Of a DNA stretch of 64,000 nt, positions 46,429-52,778 are shown piece after piece. Position numbers and translations under genes: made by a program. Origin of the DNA: Actinomycetota bacterium (GTDB lineage: Bacteria > Actinomycetota > Acidimicrobiia > Acidimicrobiales > AC-14); assembly GCA_040754375.1 (NCBI GenBank), contig JBFMCT010000003.1, positions 62,001 to 126,000 on the forward strand, given 5' to 3'. Numbering within the stretch: position 1 is the stretch's first letter; every line of letters begins with the position of its first letter. The notes beneath the pieces are model-generated. The model ran no database searches. It was given only the letters and a program-made list of their open reading frames with translations, and was not told where the DNA came from.

Positions 46429-47440
46429 TCACCCCTCGCCGGCGGCCAGGCAACGGATCTCTCCGTCGCGCAGGCCGAAGTAGACGAGGGCGAGAAGCTT
46501 GCGTGCCGCCGCCACGATCCCGACCTTGCGGCCTCGCCGCCCGGCGATGCGCCGGTAGTCGGCCTGGAGCTTGGTGCCGCCCCGCTGGCGCTGGACGGCC
46601 TCGACGGCGGCCCAGCGCACCAGGCGGCTGCCCTGCTTTGTGATGTGGCCCCGCTGCACGGTCGTGTCCGACTCGCGGTGGCGCGGGGTGAGGCCGGCCC
46701 ACGACGACAGCTTGTCGGGGCCGTCGAAGCGCCCGACGTCGCCGATCTCGGCCACGAACACCGACCCCAGCACGGGCCCCACGCCGGGGATGCGCTGGAT
46801 GGCCCGGTAGCCGTCGTGGCCGCCCAGGGCGGCGGCCACCTCGCGGTCCAACATGGCCACCTCCCGGTCGTAGAGCTCGATCAGGTCCCGCAATGACTCG
46901 ACCCGCACGGTGTAGGCCCGGGCCAGGGGGACGGTGTCCAGCAGCGCCCGGCCGGCGACGCCGAACAGGTCGCTCATCGGGACGGCCACGCCCTCTTTGG
47001 CCAGCACGGCGTGGACCTGGGACTTGAGGCCCGAGCGCAGCGCCACCAGCTTGGCCCGGTAGCGCACCAGCTCCCGCAGCTCCCGCAGCTCGGGTGGGGC
47101 GACCCAGGCCTCCGCCAGCCGGCCGAGGCGGAGCAGGTCCACCAGGTCGGTGGCGTCCCGCTCGTCGTTCTTCACCCGCCGGTTGCCCCAGTTGTTGCCG
47201 AGGGGGTGGGCGAGGTGGACGTTGGCGCCCGCCTCGCCCAGCAGGTCGGCCAGCCAGTACCAGCCGTAGGTGGCCTCAAGCACGACCTCGGGGTCGGGGC
47301 CGGCCTTGGCCTGCTCGGCGGCCAGGGCCAGGTGGGTCGTTGGTGATGCGCACCGTCTCCAGCGTCTCGCCCGCCGGCGTGCGGCGCACGATCGCGCTGC
47401 GGCGGCGGTGCAGGTCGATGCCGACGTACTGTCGTTCCAT
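46429..47440 (-). pseudogene. IS110-family transposase, frameshifted
   Basis: The true start is ATG 47440 with ribosome binding site GGGAGGAA. The first segment MERQYVGIDLHRRRSAIVRR holds the first catalytic Asp of the DEDD (RuvC-like) domain. Near 47338 a one-base excess (a CCC run) moves the frame; the rest continues in another frame as HLALAAEQAKAGPDPEVVLE, with KNDERDATDLVDLLRLGR, then the C-terminal transposase domain (IPGVGPVLGSVFVAEIGDVG; LSSWAGLTPRHRESD). Full length would be about 337 residues. Element boundaries cannot be seen: this family lacks terminal inverted repeats. Confidence 0.85.
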
Positions 47441-47640
47441 CGGGGCCTTCCTCCCTTGTTCGGGGGTTGTGGAAGACCCGAGTGTCGCGACACTCACCTG
47501 CTCGGGGCGAGCGGACGCCCCGTCCTTCTTCTTCGCCGCGGACTTCGTGGCCATCCGACCGACTCCTCGATGTCCGGCGTCCGGCCGGTCGTATTCAACC
47601 GGGCCGTCACGCGAGGGCGACGCTGCGCTCCTTCATGGCA
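47441..47640. other. Upstream non-coding flank of the IS110-type transposase
   Basis: About 200 bases without a supported gene between the transposase start and the end of the gene at 47641. In the IS110 group the non-coding end next to the recombinase start encodes a bridge RNA; a structured RNA could lie here, but I cannot identify it by eye. Confidence 0.35.
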
Positions 47641-48240
47641 TCAAGCTCTGAGCGGGGGGAGGGCCACCACGAGGTCGGGCATCTCCTGCGCGAGGTACTC
47701 TGCGTTCCTGGCCTCCAGGTAGCCCCGGCGGAAGAGCATGACCGTCCCGAGCCGCAGCTCGCCCAGCTCAACGCCGTCCTCCTCGCTCTGCAGGTCAGTC
47801 CAAAGGACAAGGCCGAGCTCGTGGAAGTAGATACTGTCGTCCGGTGTCGGCGTAGAGTCGTCGTCCGGCCGGCAGGCATAGACAAGGTCCTCGATGGGCC
47901 CGGTAGGACCCCACGGCTGGTAGCCGGCCTCCACCAAGCACTCGGCCGCCGAACGCATCGTCGGACCATTCAGCCGGCAGTCCCCGACGACCGGCGGGTA
48001 CTCGGTAGCCCCTATGAACTCTATGGCTTCACACCACCAAGCCGGACTAGAGAACTCGAGCAGGACGGGGAACCCCCCTTCGAACAAGCAAGTGCGAGTC
48101 ATAGTCTTGTCCGTCGCGCTCCGTCGAAGGACGTGGGCCGATAGGCGGCGGTCGATCTCATCGATGGTGTCGCCGAACCTGACCCAGCCGACGGCGGGGA
48201 TCTGGATACCTTCGAAAGGAACAGCCGGGTAACCCGTCAC
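47641..48240 (-). CDS. Unrecognised cytoplasmic protein, copy 1 of a duplicated pair
   Basis: 199 residues from GTG 48240, which overlaps the stop of the secreted-protein gene as GTGA. Contains VPFEGIQIPAVGWVRFGDTI, GDCRLNGPTMRSAAECLVEA, GYQPWGPTGPIEDLVYACRP and an acidic DDDSTPTPDDS stretch. No signal peptide or known domain. It is paralogous to 51070-51672: the C-terminal 110 residues are nearly identical and residues about 38-80 diverged. The coupling suggests that it works with, or counters, the secreted protein. Confidence 0.65.
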   Translation of the reverse strand: MTGYPAVPFEGIQIPAVGWVRFGDTIDEIDRRLSAHVLRRSATDKTMTRTCLFEGGFPVLLEFSSPAWWCEAIEFIGATEYPPVVGDCRLNGPTMRSAAECLVEAGYQPWGPTGPIEDLVYACRPDDDSTPTPDDSIYFHELGLVLWTDLQSEEDGVELGELRLGTVMLFRRGYLEARNAEYLAQEMPDLVVALPPLRA

Positions 48241-49395
48241 GTGACGGTGAAATGGACGGGGATCGTTGCTGTTGCCCCGCTCGGTTCTCGGAAACAAACC
48301 TGCCAGATACCCGGTGACCGCTCGACCCTGCCCGTCGTGTTGGGGATGAAGCCACTCGAGCTGGACGTGCGGGGGTTGGGATTAGCGTTGACCACGTTGA
48401 ACATACAGGCGTGAGCATCATGGCCTGGCTCGCCCTGGGCATTAGCGGTCACCAGGAAGAACTGGCGGCTCGCTCGGGCCCCGGTAGCGAAGGCAGTGAT
48501 CAAAGTCCCCGGTGGGCCGTCACCCTGGCTCCCTAGTTCCCCTTTCAAGCACCTGAGGAACCGCGTCTCGATGTGCTCGCGAGCCTGGTCAAGGGCGGCG
48601 TTGTAGCGCCCATCCGGGAACTTGGCACGCAGGTCGGCGTCGTCCATATTGAAGGCTCCAAGGAGGTCACCCTGTGCAAGCTTGGCGCGCTGAGCTGACC
48701 GATATGTATCGGACTCTGTGTGGCTGCCCCAGCTCCCTGTAGCATAGTGGTCTGCCCTCTTCATTACGATGATTGGGCGGCAGGTCTTCACCAGCGGTTT
48801 GCCCTGGAACTTCCAGTCGCTAGGGTATGCCATGTGGGCCGGCACGTGGTGGCGTTCGCACCCGGCAGGCACCGTTGGGAAGTACCTCTGAAGGCCCCCG
48901 GAGTAAGGCCCATCGCACTCCCCGGACTGGTCCTCGATGGTGACATGGCCGCCGGGAGAGCACTCGCTGGCAACAGTGGCGTACACGTGGGCAACACCGA
49001 GTGCGGCCGCCAGCGGGATGTAGACGATGACATCGAGCACGCCGTTCGCATCGGTGATGAAGTCGGTAAGGTCATCCTCCTCCGACGTAAGGAGTGCGCC
49101 TGCCAGGCAGGCGACGCCGGCAGCCGTCGCTAGCGCGTCGCGTATCCGGACGTTGTACTCCCGGTTGGGGCTCAGGCCAGTGAAATGCACCTTGAGCTCC
49201 TCGCCCGGCCCGACGGTGGACGGAGCGAGCGGGGCAGTGGGCGTCGTGGCGTACCACGTGAACCCGACCGGGACGGTACATGCCCACGCCGTCGAAGCAA
49301 CCGCCAGCAGGACGCTACAGGTAGTTATGCCAGCTTTCGCCAGGAGCTTTCGCCAGGAGCTTTCGCCAGGAGCTTTCGCCAGGTGCCTTCGCCAT
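48237..49395 (-). CDS. Secreted Ig-like protein whose start is out of frame across a 13-bp repeat array
   Basis: Body frame 48237-49330 encodes a signal-peptide end (TTCSVLLAVASTAWACTVPV), a segment like an Ig domain (GPGEELKVHFTGLSPNREYN), a middle with HHVPAHMAYPSDWKF, and a C-terminal beta domain (GIWQVCFREPSGATATIPVH). The obvious start, ATG 49395 behind AGGAGG, is one base out of this frame because of the 13-bp array at 49342-49393; with one unit fewer it reads MAKAPGESSWRKLLAKAGIT into the signal peptide and gives 381 residues. As it stands the start frame stops after about 26 codons, and only internal starts such as GTG 49190 (lacking the signal peptide) are open. Likely phase-variable or recently inactivated. 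Confidence 0.65.
49342..49393. repeat. 13-bp tandem array at the 5' end of the secreted-protein gene
   Basis: Three identical units AGGAGCTTTCGCC (49342-49354, 49355-49367, 49368-49380) followed by a variant (49381-49393) and preceded by an 11-base partial unit (49331-49341). The array begins one codon into the gene. Since 13 is not a multiple of 3, each gain or loss changes frame. Confidence 0.92.
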
Positions 49396-49457
49396 TGTCG
49401 CCGTCCTCCTGCGTAGTGGTTAGCTACGACAAACCGTAGGCGTGTTCTCCGTCGTCG

Positions 49458-49895
49458 TCAACTGTCCCCAGGGGGGCAGACGATCTCCCAGAGGCAGAGG
49501 CCGTGGGGTGGGGCGACGCGGGCGGCCGACGAGCGCTGGCGGGCGCGGACGATCGAGGCCATCTCGCCCGCCCGGCGCTGGCCGGAGCCCATCTCGACGA
49601 TGGTGCCCACCACCGAGCGGACCACTTGCTGGCAGAAGGAGCTGGCTTCGATGTCGAAGCGCAGCACGCCGTCGCCTAGGTCGACCCAGCGGGCGTCGGT
49701 GACCCGGCGCGCCATCGAGTAGCTAGGTGTGCCCTTGGGCACCCGGCGGAACGAGGTGAAGTCGTGCTCGCCGATGAGCGGGTCGCTCGTCAGGCGCATG
49801 GCGGCCAGGTCGAGCTCCTTGTCGACGTGCCACGACGTGGCCGCCAGGAACGGGTCGGGCACCGGCTGGTTGAGGACCGTGTAGCGGTAGCAGCC
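49458..49895 (-). pseudogene. truA fragment (C-terminal half), duplicate
   Basis: Encodes about the last 145 residues of TruA, from YRYTVLN at 49895 to the same stop context as the intact gene (52017). The catalytic Asp region is missing. Nearly identical to 52017-52450, including about 60 bases of flanking intergenic DNA (49396-49457 with 51962-52016), so the duplication is not ancient. Confidence 0.9.
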
Positions 49896-49927
49896 GGGCG
49901 ATGCCCGAGCGGCAACGCGACCCCTCC

Positions 49928-50220
49928 CTGCTCATTGCAGCTCGTCAACCGGGGCCTGTCGGCCTCGGGCCGGTTCCTGGTCCTGCGGGTCCTCCACTCC
50001 ACGACCGCCCTGGCGCGCTGGCCGCGCTCAGCGCTGTGGTCGCCGACCTCGGGCTCAGACATCCTGGCCGTCGAGCACCACCGGGCCGGCCTCGTCCTCC
50101 CCGAGGCCGACGTCGAGGTCGTGCTCACCCTCGAGACCCGCGACCCCGCCCACCGCGCCGAGGTCGTCACCGCCCTACGAACCGCCGGCTACCAAGTCGA
50201 CCTCGTCGGCCGAGGTACAT
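49928..50220 (+). pseudogene. ilvA fragment (ACT domain), duplicate
   Basis: Matches the last 280 bases of ilvA: QLVNRGLSASGRFLVLRVL, a frame disturbance within the next 20 codons, then ILAVEHHRAGLVLPEADVEV to GYQVDLVG. No catalytic domain. It abuts the truA fragment, with only 32 bases between. Confidence 0.9.
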
Positions 50221-50257: not shown

Positions 50258-50530
50258 ATGGCCCTCAACATCAAGAACGCCGAGGTCGAACGGTTGGCCG
50301 GTGAGGTCGCCCGCATGGCCGGTGAGACCAAGACCGAGGCGGTGCGCCAAGCGCTGCTCGACCGCAAGGGCCGCCTGTCGCGACGGGCCCACATGGCGGC
50401 TCCGGGCACCCGCGCCCGCCGGTTCCTCGAGGCCGAGGTCTGGCCATGCGTTCCGGCCGCCGAGCTCGGCCGGCGGCTGACATCAGGCGAGGAGGACGCC
50501 ATATTGGGCTACGGCCCAGGCGGGGCGTGA
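50258..50530 (+). CDS. vapB: VapB-type antitoxin (PSK-like transcription factor family)
   Basis: 90 residues from ATG 50258 (MALNIKNAEVERLAGEVARM), followed by GETKTEAVRQALLDRKGRL. This matches VapB antitoxins of the Rv0623 type, with a ribbon-helix-helix N-terminus and a toxin-binding tail. Overlaps vapC by GTGA at 50527-50530. Present only in copy 2 of the duplication. Confidence 0.9.
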   Translation: MALNIKNAEVERLAGEVARMAGETKTEAVRQALLDRKGRLSRRAHMAAPGTRARRFLEAEVWPCVPAAELGRRLTSGEEDAILGYGPGGA

Positions 50531-50916
50531 TCGTCGACACGTCCGCGCTGGTCGCCGTCGTCGTGCGGGAGGACGGCTTCGAGGCGGTCCTCGACAAGCT
50601 CTCGGCCCCGCCGTCGGCCCCCGGGATAGGCGCCCCGACCGTCGTCGAGCTCGGGATCATCCTCTCCGCCCGGCTCGGGAGAGATGCCCGCGACCTGGTG
50701 GCGACGCTCCTTTACGAGCTCGACATTGCCGAGGTCCCCTTCGGGGAGGCCCACTGGCGCGAAGCCGTGGGGGCGTTCTGGCGCTACGGCCGGGGCCGCC
50801 ACCCGGCGGCGCTCAACTTCGGCGACTGCCTGAGCTACGCGGTGGCCCGCCTGGCCGACCAGCCACTCCTCTACGTCGGCGACGACTTCGGTGCCACCGA
50901 CATCCTCGCCGCCTGA
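50527..50916 (+). CDS. vapC: VapC-type PIN-domain ribonuclease toxin
   Basis: 129 residues from GTG 50527. PIN-domain acidic residues: Asp4 in VIVDTSALV, Glu in TVVELGIIL, Asp in NFGDCLSYAVA, and Asp in YVGDDFGATD. Cleaves RNA, often tRNA or 23S rRNA; target unknown here. Intact pair. Confidence 0.92.
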   Translation: MIVDTSALVAVVVREDGFEAVLDKLSAPPSAPGIGAPTVVELGIILSARLGRDARDLVATLLYELDIAEVPFGEAHWREAVGAFWRYGRGRHPAALNFGDCLSYAVARLADQPLLYVGDDFGATDILAA

Positions 50917-50947: not shown

Positions 50948-50992
50948 AGGGATCTCGACGCCCTCGAAAGGGACAGCCCGGTAACCCGTCAC
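50948..50992 (-). pseudogene. 45-base remnant of a third copy of the partner gene
   Basis: From GTG 50992 it reads VTGYRAVPFEGVEIP, the first 15 residues of the partner proteins at 47641-48240 and 51070-51672, then diverges abruptly. Shows a third copy or a partial repeat of the gene start between vapC and copy 2. Confidence 0.7.
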
Positions 50993-51069: not shown

Positions 51070-51672
51070 TCAAGAACTCGGTGACGGCGGGAGGGCCACC
51101 ACGAGGTGGGGCTTCCCCTGCACAAAGTACTTCGCGTTCAGGGCTTCCAGGTAGCCCCGGCGGAAGAGCATGACCGTCCCCAACCGCAGCTCGCCCAGCT
51201 CGACCCCCCCCTCCTCGCTCTGCAGGTCAGTCCACAGGACGACGCCGATCTCGTGGAAGTAGATGCTGTCGTCCGGTGTCGGCGTAGCGTCGTCGTCCGG
51301 CCGGCAGGCATAGACGAGGTCCTCGATGGGCCCGGTAGGACCCCACGGCTGGTAGCCGGCCCGCACCAAGCACTCGGCCGCCGACCGCATCGTGGGGCCG
51401 GCGAGGCGGCAGTCCCCGACGACCGGCGGGTGCATGACGGCGTCGCTGAAACCGATTGCTTCGCACCGCCACGGCGGACCCAGGGAACAAACCGCAATGG
51501 AGAGCCCTCCGTCGAACTCACAGTGAATGCCCATCGTGTCGTACATCTCGGTCCGTGCGCAGACGTGGGCTGATAAACGGCGGTCGATTTGATCCATGGT
51601 CTCACCGAACCTGACCCAGCCAACGGCGGGGATCTCGACCCCTTCGAAAGGAACGGCCCGGTAGCCTTTCAC
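51070..51672 (-). CDS. Unrecognised cytoplasmic protein, copy 2 of the duplicated pair
   Basis: 200 residues from GTG 51672, again overlapping the stop of the secreted-protein remnant as GTGA. Nearly the same as the copy at 47641-48240 in VGWVRFGETMDQIDRRLSAH and the C-terminal 110 residues; residues about 38-80 differ (CEFDGGLSIAVCSLG instead of CLFEGGFPVLLEFSS). It appears intact although its secreted partner has been deleted. Confidence 0.65.
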   Translation of the reverse strand: MKGYRAVPFEGVEIPAVGWVRFGETMDQIDRRLSAHVCARTEMYDTMGIHCEFDGGLSIAVCSLGPPWRCEAIGFSDAVMHPPVVGDCRLAGPTMRSAAECLVRAGYQPWGPTGPIEDLVYACRPDDDATPTPDDSIYFHEIGVVLWTDLQSEEGGVELGELRLGTVMLFRRGYLEALNAKYFVQGKPHLVVALPPSPSS

Positions 51673-51961
51673 GTGACGGTGAAATGGACGGGGATGGTCG
51701 CAGTTGCCCCGTTCGGTTCCCGGAAGCAGACCTGCCAGACACCCGGTGGCCGCTCGACGCGGCCGGTCGTGTTGGGGATGAAGCCGGTCGAGTTGGACGT
51801 TCGGGGGGTGGGGTTGGCGTTGACCACGTTGAACATGCAGGCGTGAGCCTCGTGCCCGGGTTCCCCCTGAGCGTTCCCGGTACCCCCATCCGGCCGGATA
51901 CGCGTTCTGGGCTGGCACGTGGTGGCGTTGGCACCCGGCAGGCACCGTCGGGAAATACCTC
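51669..51961 (-). pseudogene. Secreted Ig-like protein gene remnant, copy 2
   Basis: The 3' part (ACMFNVVNANPTPRTSNSTG to IPVHFTVT) matches the copy at 48237-49395. An internal deletion (near 51890) removes the middle, and another (near 51961) removes the 5' end with the signal peptide and 13-bp array, joining directly to the shared 5' leader CGTCCTCCTGCGTAG. Non-functional. Confidence 0.85.
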
Positions 51962-52016
51962 GTCCTCCTGCGTAGTGGTTAGCTACGACAAACCGTAGGC
52001 GTGTTCTCCGTCGTCG

Positions 52017-52778
52017 TCAACTGTCCCCCGGGGGGTAGACGATCTCCCAGAGGCAGAGGCCGTGGGGTGGGGCGACGCGGGCGGCCGACGAGCGCTGGCG
52101 GGCGCGGACGATCGAGGCCATCTCGCCCGCCCGGCGCTGGCCGGTGCCCATCTCGACGATGGTGCCCACGACCGAGCGGACCATCTGCTGGCAGAACGAG
52201 CTGGCTTCGATGTCGAAGCGCAGCACGCCCTCGCCGAGGTCGAGCCAGCGGGCGTCGGTGACCCGGCGCACCATCGAGTAGCTGGGCACGCCCTTGGGCA
52301 CCCGGCAGAACGACGTGAAGTCGTGCTCGCCGATCAGGGGGTCACAGGCCAGGCGCATGGCCGCCAGGTCGAGCGGCTTCTCGACGTGCCACGACGTGGC
52401 CGCCAGGAAGGGGTCGGGCACCGGACGGTTGAGGACGGTGTAGCGGTAACGGCGGGCCACGGCCGAGTAGCGGGCCGAGAAGTCGGCGGCGGCCACCGCC
52501 GCCTCCCGCACGACCACCCGGGGCGCGAGCTGGCCGTTGACCGACCGCCGCACCCGGTCGAGATCGACCTCGGCGGCGTCAAGATCGAAGCTGATCACCT
52601 GGCCCCAAGCGTGGACCCCAGTGTCGGTACGCCCCCCGATGGCCAGCTTGACGGGCTGACCTAATACCCGCTCCAGCGCTCCGACCAGGGCGCCACCCAC
52701 CGTCGCGATGCCCTCGCCCTGGGGGGCGAAGCCGTGGAACCCCCGTCCGTCGTAGGCGACGACGAGCCGCAGCCTCAC
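52017..52778 (-). CDS. truA: tRNA pseudouridine(38-40) synthase
   Basis: 253 residues, intact. Catalytic Asp52 in GGRTDTGVHAWGQVISFD. Follows rplQ by 12 bases on the same strand, as usual; downstream, rplM is displaced by the accessory island. Its 3' half has a duplicate at 49458-49895. Confidence 0.96.
   Translation of the reverse strand: MRLRLVVAYDGRGFHGFAPQGEGIATVGGALVGALERVLGQPVKLAIGGRTDTGVHAWGQVISFDLDAAEVDLDRVRRSVNGQLAPRVVVREAAVAAADFSARYSAVARRYRYTVLNRPVPDPFLAATSWHVEKPLDLAAMRLACDPLIGEHDFTSFCRVPKGVPSYSMVRRVTDARWLDLGEGVLRFDIEASSFCQQMVRSVVGTIVEMGTGQRRAGEMASIVRARQRSSAARVAPPHGLCLWEIVYPPGDS

What the first reader, a model, noticed from the sequence alone, without database searches (positions are those of the whole stretch)
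49331..49395. Probable phase-variation switch: 13-bp repeats put a secreted protein out of frame
Three perfect 13-bp units plus a variant lie within the first codons of a gene with a strong ribosome binding site (AGGAGG) and ATG 49395. The start frame hits a stop after about 26 codons. Removing one unit aligns ATG with a full signal peptide and 381-residue protein. Repeats not divisible by 3 at the 5' end of a surface-protein gene are the classic layout for slipped-strand on/off switching, rarely described in actinobacteria.
Basis: partly seen in the sequence, partly recalled or inferred. Interest (0 to 1): 0.8.

Follow-up and report, generated by a model that had tools for sequence, protein, structure and literature searches.

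The report
Out-of-frame secreted toxin behind 13-bp repeats
A run of 13-base repeats at the very start of a gene for a secreted DNA-cutting-type toxin puts the toxin out of frame in this actinobacterium's assembled genome; gain or loss of repeats could switch it on again, but whether that happens in nature could not be tested.

Summary
On the minus strand, AGGAGG and ATG 49395 are followed by one variant and three perfect 13-bp units plus a 10-bp partial unit. The start frame stops after 26 codons. The other frame is open for 384 codons, carries a signal peptide shared with in-frame paralogs, and has no ATG, GTG or TTG until residue 68. Residues 157-285 belong to a C-terminal toxin domain of RHS/PT-HINT toxins, all invariant residues kept; the predicted fold best matches the DNase TseN. 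The 4-nt-overlapping downstream gene has a predicted fold matching TsiN, the immunity protein of the same crystal. The C-terminal frame was under strong selection (dN/dS 0.10 against a partial duplicate) and no disabling mutation lies downstream, so the frame break is recent or reversible. Switching itself is unproven: no reads, no second strain, no ortholog. Arrays of this kind occur about five per Mb here, so one near a gene start could be chance. Likeliest reading: a slippage-reversible OFF allele of a costly toxin; a fixed recent inactivation is nearly as likely.

The parts
49332..49394 (-). 13-bp tandem array: one variant unit, three perfect units, one 10-bp partial unit; not a multiple of 3
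49405..49410 (-). AGGAGG ribosome-binding site, 9 nt before the ATG
   Evidence: 100% identical in the duplicate copy
49315..49395 (-). start-frame ORF as assembled: ATG 49395, 26 codons, TAG
48237..49391 (-). main coding frame (384 codons), offset from the ATG frame; first standard start inside it is GTG 49190
49281..49340 (-). signal peptide region (AKAGITTCSVLLAVASTAWA, then CTVPVGFTWY), shared with in-frame paralogs
48537..48923 (-). toxin domain (residues 157-285; ERHHVPA ... KRADHYATGSWG), predicted TseN-like DNase fold
48240..48521 (-). C-terminal domain (residues 291-384), family of secreted proteins in this genome and G008; under purifying selection
47641..48240 (-). predicted immunity gene, GTG start overlapping the toxin stop by 4 nt, no Shine-Dalgarno of its own; TsiN-like predicted fold
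51672..51961 (-). remnant of a duplicate toxin gene: start and most of the gene deleted
51070..51672 (-). duplicate of the immunity gene (74% aa identity)
49458..49931 (-). duplicated 3' end of truA, marking the cassette duplication

Best explanation
A two-gene toxin-immunity operon in which the toxin's leader contains a 13-bp tandem array. Each unit gained or lost by replication slippage moves the reading frame by one base, so one in three unit numbers joins the ATG to the signal peptide and toxin. The assembled allele is in a non-joining state: ribosomes stop after 26 codons and no signal-bearing toxin is made. Because the array is nearly perfect and the downstream gene undamaged, the state is best read as a recent, slippage-reversible OFF allele of a costly secreted nuclease toxin. 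Shown: the array, the frames, the coding nature of the downstream frame and the toxin-domain homology. Predicted from models: DNase and immunity roles. Inferred: reversibility in nature and any benefit of switching.
For: Array and frames. Signal peptide and C-terminus match an intact in-frame paralog on C25. dN/dS 0.10 over 70 C-terminal codons against copy B and 0.12 against C25. No stop in 384 codons, whereas the other five frames of the same stretch hold 4-24. Toxin domain: tblastn E 3e-9 and 3e-7 to Streptomyces polymorphic-toxin-type proteins; 16 relatives from a GTDB scan, nearly all at the C-terminus of their ORF and followed at once by a small gene, two of the four scanned with PT-HINT and one of these with RHS repeats; 11 invariant positions kept. 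Toxin-domain model pLDDT above 90 in most of 161-270, top match TseN, PDB 9j9w_B, Z 8.9 over 126 residues, next row 4.9. Downstream-gene model matches TsiN, 9j9w_A, Z 7.8, and RhsI1, 6xtd_B, Z 6.4, among others. Zero disabling changes downstream bounds the OFF time to about 0.02-0.05 neutral substitutions per site, against dS 0.4-0.6 between the copies.
Against: No length variant has been seen. No ortholog or second strain exists in the searched collections. Arrays of 10-13 bp units occur elsewhere in this genome without any gene-switch role apparent, so position near a start may be chance. Only three perfect units, so slippage may be slow.
Confidence: 0.48

Rival explanations
1. Recent fixed inactivation: one tandem expansion knocked out a toxin no longer worth its cost, and the gene is at the start of decay, as its duplicate copy B already is.
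For: Copy B has lost its start and most of the toxin while keeping an immunity gene; remnants of the same C-terminal domain lie on C25; toxin loss with immunity retention is common in such loci (general knowledge).
Against: No other lesion in the gene; strong past constraint; the same array can contract as it expanded.
Confidence: 0.33
2. The assembled allele is expressed without switching, through a non-standard start (CTG within the array) or a +1 ribosomal frameshift.
For: The array is open in all three frames and CTG codons lie in the right frame.
Against: The only strong ribosome-binding site serves ATG 49395; no known +1 frameshift motif seen by eye; no ATG/GTG/TTG in frame before residue 68; a start at GTG 49190 would lose the signal peptide.
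Confidence: 0.1
3. Assembly or consensus artefact: the true majority allele has another unit number and is in frame.
For: The genome is a 105-contig draft and no reads could be checked.
Against: A 63-bp array is normally spanned by single reads, and collapse would remove units rather than add them (inference).
Confidence: 0.09

Closest known systems
TseN-TsiN DNase effector and immunity pair of Acidovorax citrulli (PDB 9J9W, PMC12574953)
   Same: Predicted folds of both the toxin domain and the neighbouring gene match the two chains of this complex; toxin gene followed by its immunity gene.
   Different: No sequence match to 9J9W in a profile search of PDB sequences; delivered by a type VI system, here a Sec-type signal peptide; toxin domain is C-terminal there, internal here.
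RHS / PT-HINT polymorphic toxins of Streptomyces and others
   Same: Same C-terminal toxin domain by sequence, small gene directly downstream.
   Different: Those are large RHS/HINT proteins with the domain at the very C-terminus; here a small secreted protein with a further domain after it and an array in the leader.
MafB-MafI secreted toxins of Neisseria (PMC4287609)
   Same: Signal-peptide-bearing polymorphic toxins with adjacent immunity genes.
   Different: Different N-terminal domain (DUF1020); the passages read do not describe leader-array switching of mafB.
NapC/NapR of Neisseria gonorrhoeae (PMC11798529)
   Same: Secreted killing peptide with immunity gene, inferred phase-variable and mostly OFF in sequenced strains.
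   Different: Homopolymer tract, bacteriocin-like peptides, thousands of genomes supporting length variation.
Tandem-repeat phase variation in Mycobacterium tuberculosis (PMC12817950)
   Same: Actinobacterium with tandem-repeat unit number changing within a population.
   Different: Repeats in promoters altering transcription, not in a leader altering the reading frame.

Membership tests
Slipped-strand (contingency) phase-variable gene | Tandem array with a non-triplet unit between start codon and the body of a protein-coding gene | tested here: met
   coding nature of the body:
Slipped-strand (contingency) phase-variable gene | Unit number decides whether start and body share a frame | tested here: met
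   Frame arithmetic on the sequence
Slipped-strand (contingency) phase-variable gene | Unit number varies within a population or between strains | not testable with these tools
   No reads, one genome in the genus, no ortholog
Slipped-strand (contingency) phase-variable gene | Expression differs between unit numbers | not testable with these tools
   Needs experiment
Polymorphic toxin carrying the RHS/PT-HINT-linked ExxHxP...DH domain | Sequence homology with conserved residues | tested here: met
Polymorphic toxin carrying the RHS/PT-HINT-linked ExxHxP...DH domain | Toxin domain at the C-terminus | tested here: not met
   A further 94-residue domain follows; so it carries the domain but lacks the classical architecture
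Polymorphic toxin carrying the RHS/PT-HINT-linked ExxHxP...DH domain | Immunity gene directly downstream | tested here: inconclusive
   Gene overlaps by 4 nt; fold match to TsiN and RhsI1; sequence similarity to the other candidate immunity genes weak
TseN DNase family | Sequence homology to TseN | tested here: inconclusive
   Fold match Z 8.9, but 9J9W absent from the PDB sequence search at E up to 10
TseN DNase family | DNase activity | not testable with these tools
   Needs experiment

The most novel reading that the evidence does not exclude
A polymorphic nuclease toxin in an actinobacterium is switched ON and OFF by slippage of a 13-bp array in its leader, and because the immunity gene is translationally coupled the whole toxin-immunity operon switches together, giving a mixed population of killers and non-killers.
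Probability: 0.35. Interest if true: 0.75.

Novelty: new variant of a known kind. Interest (0 to 1): 0.55.

Why it matters
If units vary in nature, this would be slippage-controlled expression of a polymorphic toxin in an environmental actinobacterium. Phase variation is mostly described for surface structures of Gram-negative pathogens. It would make a testable case of why clonal populations keep silent copies of a weapon. Even without switching, it places a TseN-like toxin domain inside a small Sec-type secreted protein, a different delivery architecture from type VI and RHS carriers.

Tried and rejected
Orthologs in genus, family and order genomes, GTDB contigs and viral contigs: none with the leader. 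The G100 order hit was checked and is antisense of an unrelated gene. Pfam and NCBIfam give no name to the toxin domain, the C-terminal domain or the immunity gene. Foldseek alone on both models found nothing below E 0.001; only the VIA second look resolved them. Profile comparison of the immunity pairs gave no support. RNA folding of the leader is weaker than shuffles, so no hairpin switch is suggested. The consensus promoter scan found no minus-strand site.

Full report
The observation. The array is real and as described, on the minus strand. AGGAGG (49405-49410) stands nine bases before ATG 49395. Then follow GGCGAAGGCACCT, three perfect GGCGAAAGCTCCT and a partial GGCGAAAGCT. The ATG frame ends at TAG 49317-49315 after 26 codons. 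The next frame is open from 49457 to its TGA at 48239-48237 and has no ATG, GTG or TTG before GTG 49190. The unit pair is found nowhere else in the genome. The genome is an actinobacterial draft: 11 WhiB genes, a family that rang in only one of 14 control genomes, Corynebacterium glutamicum; 105 contigs, 97% complete.

Is the downstream frame a real gene? Yes. Its signal peptide and first residues (LLAVASTAWACTVPVGFTWY) and its last 94 residues match an intact paralog on contig C25 that starts in frame, and looser relatives in G008 of the same family. Against the partial duplicate B in the window, the last 70 codons have dN 0.059 and dS 0.572; against C25 dN/dS is 0.115. There is no stop in 384 codons, while the other frames of the same stretch hold 4 to 24.

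What the gene encodes. Between the leader and the C-terminal domain lies a domain of about 130 residues (157-285). tblastn finds it in Streptomyces plasmid proteins, one annotated as a polymorphic toxin-type protein. A degenerate-pattern scan of GTDB contigs found 16 relatives in Streptomyces, Paractinoplanes, Pseudomonas, Shewanella, Pseudoalteromonas and others. In nearly all it is the last domain of its ORF and is followed at once by a small gene; of four toxin ORFs scanned against Pfam, two carry PT-HINT and one of these also RHS repeats. The window keeps all 11 invariant positions. The AlphaFold2 model is confident in this domain (pLDDT above 90 in most of 161-270) though poor elsewhere. 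Its best structural match is chain B of 9J9W, the DNase TseN (Z 8.9, 126 residues, rmsd 3.9; the next row is 4.9). The downstream gene, whose GTG overlaps the toxin's TGA by 4 nt and which has no ribosome-binding site of its own, gave a weaker model (pLDDT 64). Among its matches are chain A of the same entry, TsiN (Z 7.8), and RhsI1 (Z 6.4), although four proteins that are not known as immunity proteins score slightly higher, 8.0-9.0. The two predictions point to the two partners of one crystal, but Z values near 8 can be common arrangements and no sequence match to 9J9W was found, so DNase and immunity roles are predictions. The source for TseN and TsiN is PMC12574953.

Local history. The cassette truA 3' end - toxin - immunity is duplicated. 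Copy B has lost the toxin's start and most of its body but keeps an immunity gene at 74% identity. The stretch from the end of truA to the ribosome-binding site is almost 100% identical between copies, whereas the C-terminal and immunity parts are 83% identical, which suggests recent conversion of the leader region.

How it most likely works. One unit is 13 bases, so each gain or loss shifts the frame by one. As assembled, the start and body are not joined. Zero disabling changes in 1.1 kb puts an upper bound of about 0.02-0.05 neutral substitutions per site on the time spent silent, against dS 0.4-0.6 between the copies. Silence is therefore recent, or interrupted. A near-perfect centre with a diverged edge unit is what active slippage leaves, but also what a single recent expansion leaves. 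In the silent state the coupled immunity gene should also be poorly translated; copy B could supply a related one (inference).

Is the position meaningful? In 864 kb of this genome, arrays with a non-triplet unit, three or more near-identical copies and about 28 bp or more number about half a dozen, and all but this one that were inspected lie between genes or at a gene's end. At that rate about 20 would be expected per genome, and with roughly 7% of the genome being first-25-codon sequence (about 3500 genes assumed), one or two would fall there by chance if placed at random. So position alone is no evidence for selection. I weigh a reversible OFF allele slightly above a fixed recent inactivation.

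Known comparisons. Killing peptides with an immunity gene and inferred phase variation exist in gonococcus (napC, napR; PMC11798529), secreted polymorphic toxins with signal peptides in Neisseria (MafB; PMC4287609), and tandem-repeat phase variation in an actinobacterium, though in promoters (PMC12817950). I found no report in the held library of a minisatellite-switched polymorphic toxin; the library lacks most subscription papers.

Noticed in passing
49458-49931 and 51967-52778: Intact truA with a duplicated 3' fragment beside the toxin cassette; the last part and the leader are nearly 100% identical while the rest is 83-93%, suggesting gene conversion.
   Followed up: partly
50260-50916: VapBC-like pair (Rv0623-like antitoxin and PIN domain) on the plus strand between the two cassette copies; another PIN-like gene lies next to a C-terminal-domain remnant on contig C25.
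   Followed up: no
46429-47493: IS110-family transposase directly downstream of the immunity gene.
   Followed up: no
50949-50992: Remnant of a third immunity-gene start (86% over 44 bp).
   Followed up: no
L071 8163-8211 (contig C4 88163-88211): A second, unrelated 13-bp array of 3.8 near-perfect units, intergenic.
   Followed up: partly
L088 14046-14163 (contig C3): Two 10-bp arrays just downstream of a WhiB-like gene.
   Followed up: no
G008 contig C67 2183-3695: Four tandem copies of the short secreted C-terminal-domain family in a relative.
   Followed up: no
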